From Bacteroidales bacterium (lineage in GTDB: Bacteria; Bacteroidota; Bacteroidia; Bacteroidales; P3): 51,232 nt of DNA. A program made the translations under genes and the position numbers. Positions 12,296-20,925 of this stretch are shown here, one piece after another. The stretch lies in NCBI GenBank assembly GCA_017940465.1, contig JAGAYN010000004.1:1-51232 (forward strand). Direction: 5' to 3'. Under the pieces are notes generated by a model that made no database searches, was not told where the DNA came from, and was given only the letters and a program-made list of their open reading frames with translations. Within the stretch, counting starts at the first letter, position 1; the number at the start of each line of letters is the position of its first letter.

Positions 12296-12430
12296 CAAAT
12301 TCCGTTCCATTTTTGGGAAAGAGGCCAAAATCCCGCTTTTATAACAGGCTGGTTGTCAGCATGTAAGACCCACCCTCTTCTTCCCCTCTTCGTCTTTGGC
12401 AGGTATGTGCCTGCTATCCCCTGGGGACCG
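12296..12430 (+). repeat. Interspersed repeat family A, copy 2, overlapping the helicase 3' end
   Basis: Shares CAGGCTGG, CCCTCTTCTTCCCCTCTT (12373-12390) and a GGCAGGTATG head-type sequence with the copies at 7143, 15735 and 29040. Its right end runs into the stop and last codons of the minus-strand helicase gene, so the repeat may have supplied that gene's present C-terminus. Confidence 0.55.
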
Positions 12431-15400
12431 CCCTCACCGTGACCGTGGAATCGACGTAGATCAGCCAGCCGGAGACCTGCGGATAGCCCATGGCCTCGAG
12501 GGTGCGGCAGTAGAGTTGCACCTGCCGGTCGTGCACCTCGCCGAGGTCGCGGCCTGTCTTGAAGTCGACGACCCACGTCTCCCCGGGGGCGATGACCACG
12601 CGGTCCGGGCGGCATTCGGTGTCGCCATTGACGATGGCGCATTCGTTTTTCACCTGATAGCCAGCACGGAAGAAGCGCTCGGAGAGGGGATTGGACACCA
12701 CGTCGCGCGCCAGGGCCTGGAGGCGCTCCAAGTCGGCGTCGAAGATGCCCGTGGGCTGCCGCTTCACGAAGCGGCGGATGGCCGGCTCGAGGTCGTCGGC
12801 ATGCTGAATGTCGGAGAGAAGCTCGTGGGCGTAGATGCCGAAGCGCTGGTGCCCGTCCAGGAGGGGCGTCAGCGCGCGCTCCGAGGGGGAGGCCACGCGC
12901 ACCACGGAGGTCCATTCCGGATACGAGAGCCTGTCAATGCGCACATCCTCAGCCCTTTCCTCCTTCCTTCCGCCCTCCTTACGGGGCGAATCGGGGTTGC
13001 CGAAGCCGTAGTGCTCCTGGAGGGGGGTGCCGTCGGCAGTGAGGTAACCGGCCAGCAAGGCGCTGTAGGTCAGCGCGTCGCCATTGGGCTTGGCGCAGAC
13101 GGCATGGAACCGCTCACTCGGGCGCGTGAGCGCTACATATAATATATTAAGGTCGTCGAACTCGGTCTCCTCGCGTTCGCGGTCGCGCTCGGAGTCGAAC
13201 CGCGTGGAGGAGTCCCTGCCGAGGGTGACGAAGGCGGCGGGGAGGGACTTGCCGTCGGAGGGGAGGCTCTGGTCCACCTTGACCCACAGCCTGTAGGGCT
13301 TGGGCCTGGGGGTGAAGAAGGGGCAGATGACCACCGGCGCGTCGAGGCCCTTGGCCTTGTGGATGGTGAGGAGGCGGACAGCGTCGCCCTCGTCGGAACA
13401 GGCGGCGGAGAGGTCGGGATGGTCGTCGAACCAGCGCAGGAAGTCGCCGATGCTCTGCATGTGGCGGGCGGAGAAGGCGGCGGCGCGGTTGAGGAGCGAG
13501 GCCACGTAGGGGGTGTCCACCCCGTCGAGCCGCAGGAGTCGCAGAAGCTGCTCGCAGCAGTCGTAGAGGTCGAGCGAGAGGAGCACGTCGGGATTGAAAT
13601 CCATCCCCTCGGCACGCAGCACGGCCACGAGGTCGAACCCCTGGCCCTCGAGGAAGGCATCCAGGTGGCCCGCGCGCAGGACACCGAGCCGTTGCAGCCG
13701 CAGCATGAGGTCGGCTGCCGACACACGGTCGGCCGGATCGGCCAGGCAGCGCAGGGCAGCCACCAGCGCCATCACGGCATGGCTGCCGCGCAGGTAGAAC
13801 GACTCGGCCGAACTCTGCGGCACCTCGCTGTGTTCCAACAAGTAGGCTCCCACGGCAGCCAACTCGCGGCGGGTGCGGCCCAGCACCATAATGTCGCGAT
13901 AGCTGAAGCCGTGGTTTTCAACCAAGTCGGCGATTATCGAGAGCACCTGCGCGGGGATAGCCTCGGGGTCGGAGGTCTCCACGAAGTCAATGCCCACGAA
14001 GCCCTCCGGCCCGTCGGCGTGGCGCGGAGCCACGCGCTGGAAGAGGCGTTCCCCCTCGGGCTGCACATCGAGGCTGGGCCCGATGTACGACTCCCGCGCC
14101 AAGGCATTGTCCGCGAAGTGTTTGCGGACGACATGGGAGAAGAACCGGTTGTTGAAATCCACAATGGCGCGGAGGCTGCGCTGGCTGGTGAAGAGGGGCT
14201 CGAAGCGGGCGCGGCTGAGGGTGCGGCTGTGCTGCGGCATCCCCTCCACCTTGGGCAGGCGGATGAACTGGCGCACATCGCCCTGCCGGAAGCGGTAGAT
14301 GGCCTGCTTGGCGTCGCCGACCACCAGCGACTCGCTGTTCTGCGACACGCCGTTGGCCAGCAGCGGCACCAGGTTCTGCCACTGCAGCACAGAGGTGTCC
14401 TGAAACTCGTCGATGAGGAAATGACTGTAGCGGTTGCCGAGGCGCTCGTAGAGGAAGGGGGCGTCCTGCTCAAGCACCACGCTGTTGATCAGCTTATTGA
14501 ACTCCGAAAGGTGCATCACCTCATTGGTGTCGGAGTATTCGCGGAGGCACCGTTCCAGCTCGCCGAGGAGGGCCACGGAGTAGAGGTTGGCGAGGAGGAG
14601 GGTGCGTGTGTTGTAGTCCACAAGTTGCTCTTCCAGAAGTCTCTGCGCCTCGAAATAGACCTCGCGCAAGGGCTGGGCAACGGCATCGGCGGCCGGGGTG
14701 TAGGCCTTGGCCTTGCAGAGGGTGGCCCCGCAGTAGTCCTGTGCCTCGAAAACCTTTATCGCATAGCTGTTTGGCTGCGATACGGCGCCTTGTGCCAGTT
14801 TGTTGAAGAAGGAGAGGTAGCCACGCCCGCCCTGGTTGCAGACCGACTCGTCCATACCCGCCGAAGCAAGCAGCTCCAATGCCCTTGCACCCAGCGACTT
14901 GAGCTGCTGCTCGAAGCGGCGGTTCGACTCGGTGTAGCGGCGGTAGATGTCGATGAAATCGGAGAGGGTGCAGTCGCGCAGCAAGGCCAGGTACTGCCCG
15001 GCATTCTCGGCGAAGAGCTGCGATGCGAGGGTGGCGAGCGAGCCTTCGATAGCGAAGCCCTTGCCCTCCTCCATGCGGCTGACGGCGAAGGCGGAGACGG
15101 CGCGCGTGAGGTCGTCGTGCCCCTCGGTGCCCACCAGCGACATCAGGCTGCTGACCGCCTGCTCGACCAGGTCGTCCTGCTCGATGCGCACCTCGAAGTT
15201 CACCGGCCGTCCGAGGTCGTGGGCGAAGGTGCGCACGACGCGGTGCATGAAGCTGTCGATGGTGGAGACGGCGAGGTCGGAATAGCGGTGGAGGATGGCC
15301 GTGCGGAGCATGGCGGCGCGGCGCATGAGGTCTCCCTCGGCAAGGGGGCGCGTCCGGTGGCAATCCATCTGGTTCAGCGCCTGCAACAGCTGCGCCCCCA

Positions 15401-15650
15401 GCGAGTCCCCGCGCCCCTCGCACCCCCGTGCGGCAAGCAGGTCGAGGGAATCCATTATCTTGGTTTTCATCTCGTTGGCCGCCTTGTTGGTGAAAGTGAT
15501 GGCCAGAATGTGGCGGAAGTTGTCCTTGATGCGCCCCTCGTCGCCGGACAGGGCGAAGCGGAGGTACTCGCGGACAAGGGTGAACGTCTTGCCGCTTCCA
15601 GCCGATGCCGAACTGATTATGAATGGTTTAATGTCGCTTGCAGGGTTCAT
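12414..15650 (-). CDS. RecB/AddA-like UvrD helicase with C-terminal nuclease
   Basis: About 1078 residues. Walker A SSASAGSGKTFTLVREYL at the very N-terminus, then HILAITFTNKAANEMK, FLIDEFQDTSVLQW (DExx box), VVGDAKQAIYRFRQGD, LLTIHKAKGLDAPVVICPFF and YVALTRPSERF (UvrD motifs). The C-terminal PD-(D/E)XK nuclease has CRPDRVVIAPGETWVVDFKTG and an RQVQLYCRTLEAMGY Q-Y motif. This is the layout of AddA/RecB, which process double-strand ends. An AddB partner is not adjacent. I start at ATG 15650, because the longer TTG start at 15662 lies inside the -7 box; the message would be nearly leaderless. Confidence 0.92.
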   Translation of the reverse strand: MNPASDIKPFIISSASAGSGKTFTLVREYLRFALSGDEGRIKDNFRHILAITFTNKAANEMKTKIMDSLDLLAARGCEGRGDSLGAQLLQALNQMDCHRTRPLAEGDLMRRAAMLRTAILHRYSDLAVSTIDSFMHRVVRTFAHDLGRPVNFEVRIEQDDLVEQAVSSLMSLVGTEGHDDLTRAVSAFAVSRMEEGKGFAIEGSLATLASQLFAENAGQYLALLRDCTLSDFIDIYRRYTESNRRFEQQLKSLGARALELLASAGMDESVCNQGGRGYLSFFNKLAQGAVSQPNSYAIKVFEAQDYCGATLCKAKAYTPAADAVAQPLREVYFEAQRLLEEQLVDYNTRTLLLANLYSVALLGELERCLREYSDTNEVMHLSEFNKLINSVVLEQDAPFLYERLGNRYSHFLIDEFQDTSVLQWQNLVPLLANGVSQNSESLVVGDAKQAIYRFRQGDVRQFIRLPKVEGMPQHSRTLSRARFEPLFTSQRSLRAIVDFNNRFFSHVVRKHFADNALARESYIGPSLDVQPEGERLFQRVAPRHADGPEGFVGIDFVETSDPEAIPAQVLSIIADLVENHGFSYRDIMVLGRTRRELAAVGAYLLEHSEVPQSSAESFYLRGSHAVMALVAALRCLADPADRVSAADLMLRLQRLGVLRAGHLDAFLEGQGFDLVAVLRAEGMDFNPDVLLSLDLYDCCEQLLRLLRLDGVDTPYVASLLNRAAAFSARHMQSIGDFLRWFDDHPDLSAACSDEGDAVRLLTIHKAKGLDAPVVICPFFTPRPKPYRLWVKVDQSLPSDGKSLPAAFVTLGRDSSTRFDSERDREREETEFDDLNILYVALTRPSERFHAVCAKPNGDALTYSALLAGYLTADGTPLQEHYGFGNPDSPRKEGGRKEERAEDVRIDRLSYPEWTSVVRVASPSERALTPLLDGHQRFGIYAHELLSDIQHADDLEPAIRRFVKRQPTGIFDADLERLQALARDVVSNPLSERFFRAGYQVKNECAIVNGDTECRPDRVVIAPGETWVVDFKTGRDLGEVHDRQVQLYCRTLEAMGYPQVSGWLIYVDSTVTVRAVPRG

Positions 15651-15659
15651 ATCCGCCTG

Positions 15660-15667
15660 CAAAGGTA
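15660..15667 (-). promoter_or_regulatory. -7 box of the helicase-nuclease gene
   Basis: Reading minus, TACCTTTG followed by CAGG ends about 10 nt before the ATG at 15650. Transcription would begin only a few bases before the start codon. Confidence 0.65.
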
Positions 15668-15901: not shown

Positions 15902-15933
15902 TTTTGCCATATCGGAAAAAGTATGTACTTTTG
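15902..15933 (+). promoter_or_regulatory. Promoter of the leader RNA and SPFH operon
   Basis: TTTTGCC at 15902-15908 and TACTTTTG at 15926-15933 with a 17-nt spacer containing GGAAAAAGT. Transcription start expected near 15940, leaving a leader of about 335 nt before the first start codon at 16277. Confidence 0.75.
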
Positions 15934-15939
15934 CAGTCG

Positions 15940-16276
15940 CAAACAGATAGGTCCGTTTGCCGAGAAAGATGCATTATCGCCTTATTCCGAGTTTGTGAAC
16001 TTGGCCGTTCGCTAAAAATAGTGTAAGGAATAGAGGATGGACAGATGCTCCAAGTGATGTGTATTGTCATACCGATGCGATACGCTCCAGTGGAGTTGCT
16101 CATAAAACCTTTATTTTACACTATTGGGAGGCCAAGCCCACACAAACAAGATAGGGTCACAAATGGATGGCTCCACTTTCTTGTTGTATGAGCACTCCGT
16201 CCCACGGGCCTGCGGCGGAAACAAGGCAAGACCGCCGAAGCCAAAAGAGGCGGACAAACATTAAATTCAATACACT
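15940..16276 (+). ncRNA. Long structured leader RNA (or 6S-like RNA), class unknown
   Basis: A long rod can be drawn from perfect helices: GTTTGTG 15991-15997 with 16141-16147; CTTGGCC 16000-16006 with 16130-16136; AATAGTGTAA 16017-16026 with 16116-16125; CTCCA 16048-16052 with 16091-16095; GTGTATTG 16059-16066 with 16078-16085 (two G-U pairs, 11-nt loop). A further hairpin CGGCGG/CCGCCG lies at 16213-16237. No U-rich terminator precedes the gene at 16277, and ATAGTGTA (16018-16025) is also complementary to TACACTAT (16271-16278) covering the start codon, which favours a cis-acting switch. The rod with internal bubble also resembles 6S RNA; I cannot decide by eye. Confidence 0.5.
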
Positions 16277-16933
16277 ATGGGTTGTATTTACGAAGATTCC
16301 GCAAAAGAGTTCAAGAAAAACCGCACTCCGGAGCAGAAAAAGGTTATCAACTACTTCAGGCCCCTCGGCGGCTGTGTCGGCGGCGTCATCAGCCTCTTCA
16401 GCAGGATGAGCGACGACCAGTACGAAGCCATGATTGCCGAACGCGTGAAGCAGATCAACTCGATGGATGCCGCTCTGAACAAGCTGGGCATCGACGTCGA
16501 CATGGTCAAGGAGGTGAAGCCCATCTACTTCGAGGGCTACCACTTCGACGAGAAGAAGACCTTCGCCAGGCTTGGCAAGGACGACAAGTGGCGCAGCTCG
16601 GCCTACGAAATCACCTGGATTTTCGCCGGCGACAAGCAACTTTATGTCTACAACTACCGCTTCAACATGGACGAAGACAGCAAGACCGTCACCGCCGAGG
16701 AATTCTTCTACAAAGACATCACCAACGTCAACCACACCACAGAGACCGTGGAGAAAGAAATCTACGACTTCAGCTGCATCAAATCGAAGAAAGGCCGCAA
16801 GAGTGTGGAATACAACGACTTTGTGCTCAGCGCCATGGGCGACAAACTCCTCTGCTCGATGCACGCCACCGAGGAGAACGAGCGCTCCATCCAGGGACTG
16901 AAGAACAAGATACGCGAGAAGAAGAACGCCTGA
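16277..16933 (+). CDS. Unknown protein, first gene of SPFH/YidD-like operon
   Basis: 218 residues, no signal peptide. A short N-terminal segment has one weakly hydrophobic Gly-rich patch (PLGGCVGGVISLFS, about 29-42). The centre (about 105-160) is predicted beta-rich (SAYEITWIFAGDKQLYVYNYRFN, then a TVTAEEFFYKDITNV strand-turn), which vaguely recalls PH-like domains, and the C-terminus is Lys/Glu-rich and helical. I do not recognise the family. The start codon overlaps a sequence complementary to the leader. It is followed at 25 nt by the YidD-like gene and should be cotranscribed with it. Confidence 0.8.
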   Translation: MGCIYEDSAKEFKKNRTPEQKKVINYFRPLGGCVGGVISLFSRMSDDQYEAMIAERVKQINSMDAALNKLGIDVDMVKEVKPIYFEGYHFDEKKTFARLGKDDKWRSSAYEITWIFAGDKQLYVYNYRFNMDEDSKTVTAEEFFYKDITNVNHTTETVEKEIYDFSCIKSKKGRKSVEYNDFVLSAMGDKLLCSMHATEENERSIQGLKNKIREKKNA

Positions 16934-16957
16934 TTCCACCTCGTGACATCCGATTCA

Positions 16958-17437
16958 ATGGGCGGGGCCGACAACCCAACCGGCCCCGCTTTTCAGCAGT
17001 ATAGCGAGCCTGTCTACGGCCAGGACTACGACGAAGAATACGTGCGCTGGTACGTCCATGAGCGAGACCTGGTGCATCCGCGGCTCAACATCTTCTCCTT
17101 CACCGGACTGGTGCTGCTGGCTGCGGCGGTGGGACTGGGACTGGGCTACCTCGTATGGCTGCTCGCCGGATGCCACTGGAGCCTGACCGCTACGCTGTGG
17201 GTGGCCGGAACCGTCACCCTCCTCGGCAACCTCCGGATGCTGTTCATCGGACTGGTAAAACTCTACCAGCACTACATGCCGGAGGGCATCCGGCGCAACT
17301 GCATCCTGTTGCCCACCTGCTCCGAATACTGCATCCTCGCCTTGAAGAAATACGGTGTCATACGCGGATGCTGGAAGACTGTCCACAGGCTGCTGCACAC
17401 ATGCGTGGGGGACGACTACCACACCGACTGGCCCTGA
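16958..17437 (+). CDS. Membrane protein with C-terminal YidD-like domain
   Basis: 159 residues from ATG 16958 (an in-frame GTG at 16943 is possible). After an acidic N-terminal tail come two membrane helices (about 46-70 and 76-97). The C-terminal part (about 95-159) matches the YidD pattern: LVKLYQHYMP, NCILLPTCSEYCILALKKYG, VIRGCWKTVHRLLHT. In YidD the corresponding parts are YQR, CRFxPTCSxY, AlxxyG and KGxxLxxxR. YidD is a small membrane-insertion helper normally encoded between rnpA and yidC. Here it is fused to helices and sits in a stress-type operon, so the role is probably different. The usual C-terminal GGxDPVP is reduced to GDDYHTDWP. Confidence 0.85.
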   Translation: MGGADNPTGPAFQQYSEPVYGQDYDEEYVRWYVHERDLVHPRLNIFSFTGLVLLAAAVGLGLGYLVWLLAGCHWSLTATLWVAGTVTLLGNLRMLFIGLVKLYQHYMPEGIRRNCILLPTCSEYCILALKKYGVIRGCWKTVHRLLHTCVGDDYHTDWP

Positions 17438-17471
17438 CCCGAACGGAAAGAAACAAAAAAAACATCCAACC

Positions 17472-18551
17472 ATGGGACTTTTCAATAATCGCAACGCCAA
17501 CGAAGACGCCTATGTGGGCGGCAAAAAACATTGGGTGGACGTCATCAAGGACTCCGGTCCGGAGGACCTCCTTATCTGGCGGCAGCCCGAGGAGGACTTC
17601 AACACCAACTCCACCCTCGTCGTCATGCCCGGCGAAGAGGCCCTCTTCGTCAAAGGGGGCACCATCGAACAGGTGTTCACCAACGGCACCTACAAACTCA
17701 CCACGCAGAACTACCCCTTCATCAGCCGCCTGCGCAACGCCTTCAGCGGCGGCGTGTCGGCGTTCAACTGCGTGGTCTACTTTGTACGCACGGCACCGAG
17801 CAAGGAAATCAACTGGGGCACGCAGAGCCCCATCCAGTACTTCGACGAGACCTACCAGGAACTGCGCATCAAAGGCTACGGCGCCTACAAGGTGAATGTC
17901 AGCAACTCCTCGCTGCTGCTCACCAAACTCATCGGCGCCAACGTCGACCTCGCCTCCACCGACGACCTGAACCAGTACTTCGCCAACCAGTTCCACCAAC
18001 ACATCAGCGACGCCATCAGTAACGCCATCGACCGCCTCAAGGCGCAGACCGGCAAGGCGGTGTTCGCGCTGGCAAGCGGCCACCGCACCGAGATGGCCTC
18101 CATCATCGAGGCCCTCCTGGCGCCCATCGTGGAGGATTACGGCCTGCTGATGGAGGCATTCTCGCTGGCCCACCTCAAAATCGAGGCCGCCGACCCCGAA
18201 ATGGAGAAGGTCATCCGCCAGCGCATGGCCATGGACGTGATGCAGGGCGCGCAGGTGAACCCCGCCTGGCAGGCACAGCAGCAGGTGGACATCATGAAAA
18301 ACCTATCCAACAACCCCGGCGGCGGCGGACTGGCCTCGGCCGGCATGGGCGTAGGCATGGGCATCGGCGCCATGGGCATGATGGGCGGCATGATGGGCAA
18401 CATGCAGGCCATGCAGCCCCAACCCCAACCCACCCCGCAGACCGACGACCCGATGGCCAAGCTGCAGAAACTGAAACAGATGCTCGACATGGGACTCATC
18501 TCGACCGAAGACTTCGAGGCCAAGAAAAAAGAAATCCTCAACACCCTTTAG
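17472..18551 (+). CDS. SPFH-domain protein with C-terminal SHOCT domain (YdjI-like)
   Basis: 359 residues from ATG 17472, 34 nt after the previous stop. The N-terminal part (about 15-260) looks like the YdjI/virion-core type SPFH protein (DLLIWRQPEEDFNTNSTLVVMPGEEALFVKGG, then EINWGTQSPIQYFD). A Gly/Met-rich linker (about 290-325, GMGVGMGIGAMGMMGGMMGN) leads to a SHOCT motif (DDPMAKLQKLKQMLDMGLIS and DFEAKKKEIL). No transmembrane helix. Proteins of this type assemble at membranes and occur in phage-shock-like operons of Bacillus (ydjFGHI). The membrane genes on both sides fit that role. Confidence 0.88.
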   Translation: MGLFNNRNANEDAYVGGKKHWVDVIKDSGPEDLLIWRQPEEDFNTNSTLVVMPGEEALFVKGGTIEQVFTNGTYKLTTQNYPFISRLRNAFSGGVSAFNCVVYFVRTAPSKEINWGTQSPIQYFDETYQELRIKGYGAYKVNVSNSSLLLTKLIGANVDLASTDDLNQYFANQFHQHISDAISNAIDRLKAQTGKAVFALASGHRTEMASIIEALLAPIVEDYGLLMEAFSLAHLKIEAADPEMEKVIRQRMAMDVMQGAQVNPAWQAQQQVDIMKNLSNNPGGGGLASAGMGVGMGIGAMGMMGGMMGNMQAMQPQPQPTPQTDDPMAKLQKLKQMLDMGLISTEDFEAKKKEILNTL

Positions 18552-18555
18552 CCCT

Positions 18556-19377
18556 ATGAAAAGACATCTGCCCTGGCTGGCCATTGCCCTCGTGCTGGCC
18601 GCCATGTTCAACGTGTGCTTCTTCCTCATCACCGCCGGCACCCGGCACCTGCCCCCTTCGGTATGGATAGGCTACGCCTTCATCCACCTCGCGCTGCTGC
18701 TCATGCTGCTCACCCCGCTGATGGTGAAACGCGGCAACCAGGCCGAGGCCGACTACCGGCGGCCCCTCTACGCCGGAACCACACTCTATTTCTTCATCAC
18801 ACTGGTCATCAACGCCCTCTTCATCACCGACTCCCTCAACAGCGAACTGGTCCAGATGTATATCAACGCTGAAGCCAATCCGCAAGAGGGGTTGTGGGAG
18901 TGGCTGATCGGCCACCTCTCCGGACAGGAAGGCGTGGTGGCGGCCTGGATCCTCCAGGCGCTCGGCACTCCCGTCAGCGTGGCGGCGGCAGTGATTACCA
19001 ACACTCTCCTGCTCGGCCTCCTGGCCCTCTACCTCATCGTCAATCTCGCCGCCAACACCGACACCGCCGCCCAGCAAGAGCGCCACGAGCAGGAACTGGC
19101 CTATGTCAAGGAGGGCGCTTCACGGCTCAAGTACATCGCCGGCCTTACCCAAGACCGGAACCTGCAGCGGAAGGTGAGCCAACTGAACGACCTCGTGTCG
19201 AGCAGCCCCCTGCGCTCCTGTCCGGAGGCCTCACCCCTGGAACGCAAACTGCTCAACTCCCTGAGCGACCTGGAAGATGCCTGCCAGGCCAACGACGAGC
19301 AGGCGGTGCTGCGCCTCTGCGACGACCTGACCGACCTCGTCCGCCGCCGCAACCGCATCGTGTCGGAAAAAGCATAA
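18556..19377 (+). CDS. Membrane protein with four helices and helical cytoplasmic tail
   Basis: 273 residues. Four hydrophobic helices (about 5-27, 35-56, 72-95 and 135-165) and then a charged, helical C-terminal half with a heptad-like pattern (AAQQERHEQELAYVKEGASR and LLNSLSDLEDACQANDEQAV). I do not recognise the family. It begins 4 nt after the SPFH gene, so translation is probably coupled, and it is the likely membrane partner of the SPFH protein. Confidence 0.8.
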   Translation: MKRHLPWLAIALVLAAMFNVCFFLITAGTRHLPPSVWIGYAFIHLALLLMLLTPLMVKRGNQAEADYRRPLYAGTTLYFFITLVINALFITDSLNSELVQMYINAEANPQEGLWEWLIGHLSGQEGVVAAWILQALGTPVSVAAAVITNTLLLGLLALYLIVNLAANTDTAAQQERHEQELAYVKEGASRLKYIAGLTQDRNLQRKVSQLNDLVSSSPLRSCPEASPLERKLLNSLSDLEDACQANDEQAVLRLCDDLTDLVRRRNRIVSEKA

Positions 19378-19399
19378 CCCCCAAAACAATATCAATACA

Positions 19400-19969
19400 A
19401 TGACAGAAGCCAACGTATACCTGTGTCCTTGCTGCGACAAGGCCATCGCCCCCGGCACCACGGTGTGTCCGCAGTGCAACCAGCCGGTGACCGTGAGCAG
19501 TTCCTCGCTGGCCGGCATGGAGATGCCGCTGGTGAACAAGTACCTCAAAGGCTACAGCAAAGCCCTCGCCGCCGACCCTTCCAACCAGGAAACCGCCGGC
19601 TACGCCGCCATGTGCTTCCTCAAAATGCGCCTCTACGACAAAGCCATGCCGCTGTTCGAGAAAGCCATCGACAACAACTACGACAGTGCCGAGCCTTACT
19701 TCATGGCGGCCATCTGCCTCCTGCGGGGCAAGAAACCCTTCCTCGCCCAGCGGGCCGACATCGACAAGGCGGTGGAATACCTCAACGCGGCCGACATGAT
19801 CGAGCCGAAAGCCATCCACCACTACCTGCTGGCCTACATAAAGGAGGACTATTTCGACCGCAAATACCTCAACATCTCGCCCACAGCACAGGAAGAACAC
19901 GGGCAAGCCGCCGCCCTCGGCCTCACCCCCGAGGACGAAGCCACCCTCCACGCCCTGCTGAACGTATAG
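19400..19969 (+). CDS. Zinc-ribbon and TPR-like helical repeat protein
   Basis: 189 residues. An N-terminal zinc ribbon with four Cys (CPCC at about 9-12 and CPQC at 24-27) is followed by helical repeats of TPR type (YLKGYSKALAADPSNQETAG, MRLYDKAMPLFEKAIDNNYD, VEYLNAADMIEPKAIHHYLL). No signal peptide. Zinc-ribbon proteins are regular partners of SPFH/phage-shock-like operons. Last gene of the five-gene run; a long palindrome follows. Confidence 0.85.
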   Translation: MTEANVYLCPCCDKAIAPGTTVCPQCNQPVTVSSSSLAGMEMPLVNKYLKGYSKALAADPSNQETAGYAAMCFLKMRLYDKAMPLFEKAIDNNYDSAEPYFMAAICLLRGKKPFLAQRADIDKAVEYLNAADMIEPKAIHHYLLAYIKEDYFDRKYLNISPTAQEEHGQAAALGLTPEDEATLHALLNV

Positions 19970-19987
19970 GCCGCGACTGGCGACCCA

Positions 19988-20070
19988 CTAAGTATCCGGC
20001 AGGTATCCAGTAGGTATTTACTTCGACTGTGAACCGATATGGCCCACTTAAAGTGGGCCATATCGGTTCA
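19988..20070 (+). repeat. Interspersed repeat family C, copy 1 (GGTATCC head, palindromic tail)
   Basis: Three degenerate AGTATCC/GGTATCC units are followed by the core GGTATTTACTTCGACTG and ACCGATATGG. The core recurs at 20843-20925 and, inverted, at 36950-37040. In this copy the tail is a perfect palindrome, see the next entry. Confidence 0.8.
20030..20070. terminator. Perfect 20-bp palindrome between convergent genes
   Basis: Twenty bases beginning TGAACCGATATGG (20030-20049) are repeated in perfect inverted order at 20051-20070 with one base between. It lies between the plus-strand TPR gene and the minus-strand PIN gene and could stop transcription from both sides, though it lacks a T run. 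Confidence 0.6.
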
Positions 20071-20072
20071 CC

Positions 20073-20480
20073 CTATCTCATCATCTCGGCGAAACCTTCG
20101 AGCGACAGCACCTCGAACACCGGAAACGGCGAGTCGGCAGCATCGGAGAAATGGCTGTCGTTGGTAACAATATAGTCCGCTCCACAGGCAAAAGCGCAGT
20201 CGGTGAACTTGTTGTCGTCATTATCCTGCCTGATGATACCGAGCCTATAGTGCGGTTCACGGCGCACCACGTTCCTGCTACGGTCTACCACCTTCAGGAA
20301 GAGGTCGGCCGCAGTGTGCGAGGCTTTCCGAGAGAGTATCTCCTCGTACTCCAGCAGAATGTCAGTAGAGACGCACAGGACAAACTCCTCCCTCAAAAAT
20401 TTGTCGAGCAAGAATGCATACCTGCTCCTGGCGCCAAGAATCTGAAGCAGGCAGTTGGTATCGAGCACCACATTCTTCAT
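20073..20480 (-). CDS. PIN-domain toxin of a type II toxin-antitoxin pair (COG1569-like)
   Basis: 135 residues. PIN acidic residues are visible: VVLDTNCLLQ (Asp near residue 6), STDILLEYEEIL (Glu), DNKFTDCAFACGADYIVTNDSHF (Asp residues). Such proteins are predicted Mg-dependent RNases. The start overlaps the antitoxin stop by 4 nt. It ends 2 nt from the palindrome. Confidence 0.92.
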   Translation of the reverse strand: MKNVVLDTNCLLQILGARSRYAFLLDKFLREEFVLCVSTDILLEYEEILSRKASHTAADLFLKVVDRSRNVVRREPHYRLGIIRQDNDDNKFTDCAFACGADYIVTNDSHFSDAADSPFPVFEVLSLEGFAEMMR

Positions 20481-20701
20481 AGGGCACGATACGGGGTGCG
20501 AAGGTGCTCTCCATCCAGCCGGTCGAGGGCGGCCTGGTCAAGGTCGCCGCTGTCCCAAAGACGCTGCATCTCGCGCTTCAGGCGGCGGGCATAGAAGTCG
20601 CGCAGAACGTCCATCAAGTCATTCAGTTCCTCCTCGTCACGGCTCGCCGCGAACGATTCAATAATCAGACGCTGCGCAGGATTGATTGCTGTGGCTATCA
20701 T
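20477..20701 (-). CDS. Antitoxin partner of the PIN toxin
   Basis: 74 residues from ATG 20701. The sequence (MIATAINPAQRLIIESFAAS, then ELNDLMDVLRDFYARRL and RLWDSGDLDQAALDRLDGEH) has the pattern of the small helical antitoxins that precede COG1569 PIN toxins in Bacteroidales. The promoter at 20730-20760 makes the longer start at 20752 impossible; ATG 20719 is also conceivable. Confidence 0.85.
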   Translation of the reverse strand: MIATAINPAQRLIIESFAASRDEEELNDLMDVLRDFYARRLKREMQRLWDSGDLDQAALDRLDGEHLRTPYRAL

Positions 20702-20729
20702 ACGGGTTCCAAATTGCATTTTCCAACTG

Positions 20730-20760
20730 CAAAAATACGAACTTTTTCCCATACGGGCAA
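20730..20760 (-). promoter_or_regulatory. Promoter of the PIN toxin-antitoxin operon
   Basis: Reading minus, TTGCCC (20760-20755) and TATTTTTG followed by CAG (20737-20730). It shares GGGAAAAAGTnCGTA with the tRNA and leader promoters in this window. It fixes the antitoxin start downstream of about 20723. Confidence 0.7.
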
Positions 20761-20842: not shown

Positions 20843-20925
20843 CCCTAAGTATCCAGTAGGTATCCGGTAGGTATCTGGTAGGTATTTACTTCGACTGTGA
20901 ACCGATATGGACCCTTTTGAACCTT
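20843..20925 (+). repeat. Interspersed repeat family C, copy 2
   Basis: Four GGTATCC-like units followed by the same GGTATTTACTTCGACTGTG core and ACCGATATGG as copy 1, but the tail then runs on (ACCCTTTTGAACC) instead of forming the palindrome. It precedes the mutA promoter. The gap 20702-21045 holds only this repeat and the two promoters. Confidence 0.8.

What the first reader, a model, noticed from the sequence alone, without database searches (positions are those of the whole stretch)
15902..19969. Five-gene SPFH / YidD-like / zinc-ribbon membrane operon behind a structured leader
Tight plus-strand run: unknown 218-aa protein, two-helix protein with a C-terminal YidD-like domain (PTCSEY, KKYG, RG...R), SPFH-SHOCT protein, four-helix membrane protein with coiled tail, and a CPCC/CPQC zinc-ribbon TPR protein. 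SPFH plus zinc-ribbon plus membrane genes recall phage-shock-like operons such as Bacillus ydjFGHI, but there is no PspA-like gene, and a YidD-type insertion factor detached from rnpA/yidC is not something I know from such operons. Together with the long leader this suggests an envelope or membrane-insertion stress system. Function is inference.
Basis: partly seen in the sequence, partly recalled or inferred. Interest (0 to 1): 0.85.

Follow-up and report, generated by a model that had tools for sequence, protein, structure and literature searches.

The report
Mobile SPFH-YidD five-gene membrane module
A five-gene cluster built around a membrane scaffold protein and a spare copy of a membrane-insertion helper is a real unit found in scattered, distant bacteria, whose parts are reshuffled and sometimes joined by toxin-like enzymes, and which is preceded by a tiny RNA fold also seen in viral DNA.

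Summary
Genes A (no known family), B (two TM segments plus YidD), C (SPFH plus SHOCT), D (membrane protein, helical tail) and E (zinc ribbon plus TPR) form a tight operon; B passes both curated YidD cut-offs. They are conserved together: of 30 related loci compared, A is in 29, B 21, C 28, D or a distant D' 26, E 27, in genomes labelled Bacteroidota, Treponema, Lachnospiraceae, Desulfovibrio and a planctomycete. Hosts are few and scattered, flanks mostly differ, and the trees of A and C conflict, so parts have been exchanged. Single lineages carry a TIR domain fused to D, or a HerA ATPase, twice with a TNT or ADP-ribosyltransferase protein. PspA was found in 1 of 26 module genomes. B is an extra YidD: all 12 distinct genomes tested that hold B also hold a canonical copy. 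The leader contains a covarying 29-nt H-type pseudoknot just before gene A (nine loci, two nearly identical), without an Rfam match, and also present in IMG/VR contigs before another gene. The 180-nt hairpin upstream of it was seen only in this window. Best reading: a mobile sub-membrane SPFH platform, probably guarding against envelope attack; function is inferred.

The parts
15926..15933 (+). Promoter-like -7 box TACTTTTG (Bacteroidota TAnnTTTG, consensus recalled)
   Evidence: in 5 of 8 pseudoknot loci such a box lies 19-37 nt before the pseudoknot, in the window 299 nt before it, in two none matched
15979..16157 (+). Long imperfect hairpin in the leader, seen only in this window
   Evidence: z=-4.9; blastn found no copy of it in the other loci held
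16225..16253 (+). H-type pseudoknot RNA: GGC-AAGA-CCGCC-GAA-GCC-AAAAGA-GGCGG, 23 nt before gene A
16277..16933 (+). Gene A, 218 aa, no family hit; five of five relatives with a valid reading have an N-terminal TM-like segment, the window copy begins MGC and has none
   Evidence: a sixth relative, L013, was read in a wrong frame
16958..17437 (+). Gene B, two TM-like segments plus divergent YidD domain, second YidD of the genome
17472..18551 (+). Gene C, SPFH (Band_7_1) plus C-terminal SHOCT
18556..19377 (+). Gene D, membrane protein with a C-terminal helical tail (tail read by eye)
19400..19969 (+). Gene E, zinc ribbon plus TPR
20029..20071 (.). Perfect palindrome with 21-nt arms, perhaps a two-way terminator between E and the convergent PIN gene
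   Evidence: for the palindrome; terminator is inference

Best explanation
The operon is one copy of a mobile, exchangeable membrane module. Shown: A, C, D and E (and B in 21 of 30 loci) recur together in several groups of bacteria; the C-D pair exists in two divergent types and is absent from two loci that keep E, A and B; gene A and gene C have conflicting trees; single lineages add enzymatic domains; B is an extra YidD beside the housekeeping one; the operon is often preceded by a covarying pseudoknot RNA or a helix-turn-helix gene. Inferred: C assembles into an SPFH scaffold on the inner face of the membrane, anchored by D (and by the TM segment of A in relatives); E is a cytosolic TPR/zinc-ribbon adaptor; B uses its YidD core to help insert or hold the module's own membrane proteins. 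The platform reacts to damage or attack at the envelope (phage entry, conjugation, toxins), and its output is a membrane action in the five-gene form and NAD-directed enzymes in the TIR, TNT and ADP-ribosyltransferase variants.
For: Gene content and order in 30 loci; domains of variants; patchy hosts, seed genomes included: 9 of 190 in the family, 5 of 195 in the family of the Treponema locus, 5 of 200 in that of the Lachnospiraceae locus, 1 of 150, 1 of 176, 1 of 395; trees in which gene A joins L022 (Bacteroidales MAG) and L101 (Lachnospiraceae side) at 100/99, gene C joins L025 (planctomycete MAG) and L104 (Bacteroidales) at 97/90, and in which three pairs of close A genes carry C genes from opposite sides of a 100/100 split; flanks mostly not shared; canonical YidD elsewhere in the hosts tested; PspA in 1 of 26; pseudoknot covariation.
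Against: No function was tested. The enzymatic variants are few: HerA in 3 of 30 rows, TIR seen in one D. B is missing from 9 of 30 rows. A search of 133 ORFs, nearly all flanking the loci, gave no clear sign of defence islands (only 25 of 77 PADLOC and 25 of 153 Pfam families are shown, and there was no control set). No PADLOC model fits the five proteins beyond a weak, probably chance Csx1 hit to D (E=0.0041). Several loci lie on short contigs of genome bins (L022 15 kb, L025 15 kb, L023 11.5 kb), so their host labels, and with them two of the cross-phylum joins, could be binning errors. The E tree has only 3 starred forks and in one of them (L018, L019, L070 at 99/98) sides with C against A, so which part moved is not settled. 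No structure prediction was available.
Confidence: 0.44

Rival explanations
1. A PspA-free envelope-stress system: C, anchored by D, makes membrane microdomains that stabilise a leaking membrane, and B boosts membrane protein insertion under stress; the enzyme-bearing variants are side branches.
For: YdjI of B. subtilis, an SPFH protein, needs the membrane proteins YdjG and YdjH to reach the membrane (PMC8581546, passages); the five-gene form carries no recognised enzyme; no clear sign of defence islands.
Against: PspA in only 1 of 26 module genomes, though the Bacteroides control genome is not among those that rang either; patchy spread with conflicting trees is unusual for a maintenance system; TIR, TNT and ADP-ribosyltransferase partners in single lineages.
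Confidence: 0.35
2. An assembly or export platform for toxins: in the HerA variants a HerA/FtsK-type ATPase moves an acidic protein with a C-terminal toxin domain, and the five-gene form is the same platform with its cargo encoded elsewhere or lost.
For: HerA next to a TNT protein (L025) and to an ADP-ribosyltransferase protein (L101), each with an acidic stretch (by eye), and next to two acidic proteins (L071); T7SS is an FtsK/HerA-driven toxin exporter (PMC3482391, passages).
Against: HerA in only 3 of 30 rows; full-length relatives of it in 3 of 26 module genomes, none in the window's genome; no exporter channel recognised, though none was searched for.
Confidence: 0.15
3. A housekeeping cluster without a joint function, kept together by chance or by simple co-inheritance.
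For: SPFH, YidD, TPR and zinc-ribbon proteins are each common (general knowledge).
Against: Same gene set in two main orders and several groups of bacteria, with mostly unrelated flanks.
Confidence: 0.04

Closest known systems
Bacillus subtilis pspA-ydjGHI (YdjI SPFH protein)
   Same: SPFH protein in a membrane-protein operon with zinc-ribbon partners; the SPFH protein needs partner membrane proteins (PMC8581546, passages; PMC11237479, passages)
   Different: PspA in 1 of 26 module genomes; no TPM-domain hit for D; has a YidD paralogue, gene A and a TPR protein
Band-7 operons of the PSP survey, one variant with Band-7 plus 2 TM plus SHOCT in place of a gene pair (PMC11237479, passages)
   Same: SPFH/Band-7 fused to SHOCT
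   Different: That variant sits with polyamine genes; the word YidD does not occur in the paper's main text
YidD membrane protein insertion efficiency factor (PF01809, TIGR00278)
   Same: YidD domain over both curated cut-offs; cysteines and the CS.Y core kept (compared by eye with the genome's own canonical YidD)
   Different: Fused behind two TM-like segments, match ends at position 55, second copy of the genome (56 bits against 110 for the canonical one), operon with an SPFH gene
HerA-effector anti-phage systems (PADLOC HerA and mad8 models)
   Same: HerA-type ATPase beside a toxin-like enzyme in variant loci
   Different: Hits are partial; the window's genome has no relative of this HerA; partners are SPFH, YidD, TPR
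Type VII secretion (FtsK/HerA ATPase with toxins)
   Same: ATPase plus toxin-domain proteins in the HerA variants
   Different: WXG/LXG substrates were not searched for; no ATPase family was hit in the five-gene form

Membership tests
YidD family | YidD domain over curated cut-off | tested here: met
   54.4 bits (cut-off 27), 51.6 bits (cut-off 40)
YidD family | Full-length domain including C-terminal part | tested here: not met
   Match ends at position 55 of 67 and of 64
YidD family | Placed beside rnpA and yidC (recalled) | tested here: not met
   Immediate neighbours are a helicase-like gene (UvrD/RecB type by eye, 12414-15662) and a PIN gene; the rest of the window was not searched for rnpA or yidC
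Psp / ydjFGHI-type system | PspA gene | tested here: not met
   0 in G000, 1 of 26 module genomes
Psp / ydjFGHI-type system | Band_7 (SPFH) protein | tested here: met
   Band_7_1 3.1e-33
Psp / ydjFGHI-type system | TPM-domain membrane protein | tested here: not met
   No such hit for window D, nor among the 25 of 41 families shown for 14 rows of D
Known anti-phage defence system | Match to a PADLOC model | tested here: not met
   Only one weak hit (D, Csx1 E=0.0041) for the five proteins
Known anti-phage defence system | Location in a defence island | tested here: inconclusive
   133 ORFs scanned (131 of the 171 flanking ORFs plus two of the window); no clear sign, but only 25 of 77 families shown and no control
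Known anti-phage defence system | Protection against phage | not testable with these tools
   needs an experiment
Known Rfam RNA family (leader pseudoknot) | Match to a covariance model | tested here: not met
   No gathering hit in the leader; at E<=10 only an sRNA model far below its cut-off (17.9 against 115 bits)

The most novel reading that the evidence does not exclude
A previously unnamed, mobile sub-membrane immunity platform: gene A, a YidD paralogue and a TPR/zinc-ribbon adaptor carry interchangeable SPFH-membrane or HerA cartridges and can be armed with NAD-consuming enzymes. Its expression in one branch is set by a new 29-nt pseudoknot regulator that phages also use upstream of one of their own genes.
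Probability: 0.35. Interest if true: 0.87.

Novelty: new variant of a known kind. Interest (0 to 1): 0.72.

Why it matters
It gives a defined gene set, present in a named Bacteroides (B. finegoldii), in which a YidD paralogue works outside its usual place, so the poorly understood role of YidD and of YdjI-like SPFH proteins can be tested genetically. The reshuffling and the TIR, TNT, ADP-ribosyltransferase and HerA attachments connect SPFH membrane scaffolds to biological conflict. The pseudoknot is a compact candidate regulatory RNA with covariation and two unrelated gene contexts.

Tried and rejected
Considered and rejected: a pseudoknot that is really coding sequence (read by eye, the frame through it meets stops in L016 and L019 and a 1-nt length change in L014); a relict HTH gene in the window leader (tblastn best hit 0.063 over 24 residues and antisense); a prophage or plasmid origin (no relative of C, E or A found in IMG/VR; none of A in phages; plasmid hits to E and A only in the record labelled B. 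finegoldii plasmid 5, whose flank has obgE, an adenylate kinase and hpt and looks chromosomal; C has 21 distant plasmid hits). Of the 20 genomes with only a distant A-like gene, the neighbourhoods of 13 were fetched: one (G957, L074) has C, D', E and A and is in the 30 rows, 12 showed no C, D or E beside it (for example valS in L077, L078 and a PBP gene in L073); 7 were not fetched.

Led nowhere: a fold for A (no model; one weak PH-domain hit, E=0.0039, in 1 of 14 members); solved relatives of A, B and C (none significant) and of D (best 0.014); a test of whether the long hairpin is repeated in the genome (no search left). The D' row of L066 in A7 was in a wrong frame and was dropped for A8. 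One search was an empty script.

Odds: on checking, the Bacteroides control without a PspA match made the PspA argument weaker; the stress rival went from 0.33 to 0.35 and the best explanation from 0.45 to 0.44.
Full report
Observation. B carries a YidD domain above both curated cut-offs, C is SPFH plus SHOCT, E has TPR and a cysteine pattern conserved in 13 aligned sequences, and A has no family hit at E<=1. Window D hits no family above its cut-off; among 14 aligned rows of D the best stray hit shown is YfhO at 9.1e-5 in one. Hydropathy gives two TM-like segments in B, five in D (the last two overlapping) and none in the window's A; the relatives L012, L018, L022, L025 and L036 each have an N-terminal one, and L013 was read in a wrong frame.

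Conservation. A scan of genome contigs with C gave 15 loci; searches with a profile of A added more, and a plasmid search gave the Bacteroides finegoldii locus, annotated hypothetical - yidD - SPFH - hypothetical - zinc ribbon. Thirty loci were compared with one set of profiles: A in 29, B in 21, C in 28, D or D' in 26, E in 27 of 30. Loci had been found through A or C, so the counts for B, D and E are the informative ones; L015 and L017, which lack E, lie at contig ends, L015 and L016 are close relatives, and L026 has only a distant C. Two main orders occur: A-B-C-D-E (Bacteroidales, B. finegoldii included) and E-A-B-C-D (Treponema-family loci and L022), besides other arrangements. Left out of this count were 12 examined and 7 unexamined genomes with a distant A-like gene and loci where C occurs without A (L006-L011, L037, L107, L108); of these, L107 has C with D, and L037 has C with D-like frames and a zinc-ribbon gene, so C-D also occurs alone. 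In the window's genus a relative of C was found in 9 of 59 genomes.

Spread and exchange. Hits with A, seed genomes included: 9 of 190 genomes of the window's family, 24 of 393 in an order sample, of which 5 are known to carry the module, the window and the distant L074 included, 1 of 395 in a phylum sample, 1 of 150, 1 of 176, 5 of 195, 5 of 200 (one of these, with stops inside, was not examined). Flanking genes are mostly not shared between loci; the main exceptions are an upstream stretch common to L013, L016 and partly L018, the HTH genes, and scattered matches between large families. In trees the A genes of L022 (Bacteroidales MAG) and L101 (family of the Lachnospiraceae locus) group at 100/99, and the C genes of L025 (planctomycete MAG) and L104 (Bacteroidales), both HerA loci, at 97/90. 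L101 lies on a 3.8-Mb contig and four further Treponema-family genomes carry the module or part of it, but L022, L025 and L023 are on contigs of 11-15 kb, so binning errors cannot be excluded there. Three pairs of close A genes (L019-L069 99/96, L017-L067 97/94, L018-L036 88/92) carry C genes from opposite sides of a 100/100 split. The E tree is poorly resolved (3 starred forks) and in L018-L019-L070 (99/98) agrees with C rather than A; so A and C have different histories, but which part moved is open. By content, C comes in two types: the window type with SHOCT and a second with a GYF_2 domain (tested for L074; seen by eye in L036 and L066) that comes with D', a remote relative of D (hhalign probability 91%, E 9e-7; membrane proteins, so caution). 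In L101 and L100 C and D are absent from the stretch fetched while E, A and B are present.

Variants. In Desulfovibrio (L023) D is fused to an N-terminal TIR domain (PF13676, 1.4e-20). In L025 a HerA-family ATPase (DUF87) and a protein with a TNT domain (3e-11) stand between E and C. In L101 the order is E-A-A-B-HerA and then an acidic 811-aa protein ending in an ADP-ribosyltransferase domain (6e-23), with a phage-type integrase gene on the other side of E; its second A copy is broken. In L071/L104 A is followed by HerA, two acidic proteins, C, D and E. TIR, TNT and ADP-ribosyltransferase domains act on NAD (family knowledge; activity not tested). Full-length HerA relatives were found in 3 of 26 module genomes, two more had partial matches, and the window's own had none.

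What it is not. PspA was found in 1 of 26 module genomes. The search rang in 9 of 14 control genomes, E. coli and B. subtilis among them; Bacteroides ihuae, named among the controls of the YidD searches, is not among the nine, so in Bacteroidales the absence may be general. The module is thus not shown to be a PspA anchor like YdjI (PMC8581546, passages read). Seventeen of 19 genome handles have a YidD (four handles repeat others, so 13 of 15 distinct genomes). In all 11 distinct genomes among them that hold the operon copy a canonical copy of 94.8 bits or more is present, and likewise in the window's genome (110 against 56 bits). So B is an extra paralogue. The hosts of L036, L069, L070 and L097-L101 were not tested. 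Two genomes, of L021 and L023, gave no YidD at all. The five proteins match no PADLOC model beyond a weak hit. Of 133 ORFs scanned, 131 of the 171 flanking ones plus two of the window, the Pfam families shown are chiefly housekeeping or general, with two integrases; the PADLOC families shown are mad3 (5 members), RTasHel, GajB/UvrD and PDC-S05 (2 each), and only 25 of 77 are shown (no control set).

Leader. The conserved element is 16225-16253, an H-type pseudoknot with stems GGC/GCC and CCGCC/GGCGG and loops AAGA, GAA and (A/G)NAAGA in most rows. On nine sequences (L015 and L016 nearly the same) 97.2% of cells pair and 14 cells have changes on both sides, against 3.6 in shuffles (0 of 500), covariation score 0 of 500; the two coarser measures are not beyond shuffles (pairs with double changes 4 against 2.6, 94 of 500; further pair types 9 against 6.9, 58 of 500). 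Sliding the partner by 1-3 columns destroys the pairing, though the structure was read from these sequences, which favours it (in L014 the aligner misplaced one short stem by a base, counted as it stands). A strict scan of 1.87 Mb (both strands) found it only before gene A, apart from one chance-like match. A model found eight loci at 41 bits or more among 45 sources, all just before gene A, the next match being 13.9 bits (all eight are training loci, so this shows specificity, not sensitivity). It was not found in up to 350 nt before the first gene (A or E) of 19 other loci. In 5 of 8 loci a promoter-like box lies 19-37 nt before it, which would put it near the 5' end of the mRNA. A pattern scan of IMG/VR gave 23 hits, of which three (L117, L125, L135; the last two nearly the same) form a perfect pseudoknot 18-19 nt before the start of a 297-310-aa protein; L123 scores as high (31 bits) but has an unpaired position and a different gene after it. 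A looser scan of the viral contigs also gave about ten matches with unrelated loops, which I take for chance. Phage records call most relatives of that protein hypothetical. Helix-turn-helix genes stand directly upstream of A in 11 of 30 rows and divergently before E in 6, one of them weak; Pfam HTH_3 was confirmed for two of the divergent ones, and the B. finegoldii one is annotated so. The window has neither.

Literature. No paper in the held library contains both YidD and SPFH as whole words (listing). In passages read, YidD does not occur in the main text of PMC11237479 (PSP survey), PMC10936438 (ESCRT survey) or PMC7159879 (conflict systems), nor in the part held of PMC3482391. PMC2864571 on candidate RNAs was read in passages; its motif drawings are not held, so the pseudoknot was not compared with them. 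The other searches (listings with starts of abstracts) showed no title on this module or RNA.

Mechanism. Shown: co-occurrence, patchiness, conflicting trees, enzyme variants, rarity of PspA, extra YidD, pseudoknot covariation. Inferred: the SPFH scaffold anchored by D, E as adaptor, B as a dedicated insertion helper, response to envelope attack. The conflict reading rests mainly on spread, reshuffling and the variant enzymes; the stress reading on the ydj analogy and the lack of a clear defence-island context. I hold the first slightly more likely.

Noticed in passing
L135:6285-6313 (-), L125:1961-1989 (-), L117:12987-13015 (-): The same pseudoknot RNA stands 18-19 nt before the start of a 297-310-aa protein gene in IMG/VR contigs; L135 also has a c4-2 RNA (Rfam).
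   Followed up: partly
window 19985-20045 and 20853-20913: A 61-nt sequence (90% alike, with GGTATC-type repeats) stands on both sides of the PIN-domain gene and its small partner ORF (20073-20752), as if that pair were a flanked cassette; the 5' copy runs into a perfect palindrome with 21-nt arms.
   Followed up: partly
L016 7113-8352, L015 7113-7998: Gene D is present as a tandem pair, a short and a longer form, in two close relatives (L015 cut by the contig end).
   Followed up: no
window 16277 and L014, L016, L024: In the window's clade gene A begins MGC, and the window copy lacks the N-terminal TM-like segment seen in five other relatives.
   Followed up: partly
L042-L064 and L072-L084: Distant homologues of gene A (open frames of about 250-390 aa) stand beside valS, a PBP gene and others in Bacteroidales, so A belongs to a wider unnamed family.
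   Followed up: partly
L037 (Butyrivibrio fibrisolvens plasmid pNP21): A plasmid carries SPFH with zinc ribbons (by eye), two D-like frames and a zinc-ribbon repeat protein, with no A, B or E hit, next to a YoeB/RelB pair.
   Followed up: no
L110 (Treponema saccharophilum plasmid pTS2): A DUF87 (HerA-like) gene follows two dynamin-family genes and a hypothetical gene and precedes an HNH endonuclease and an SMI1/KNR4 gene.
   Followed up: no
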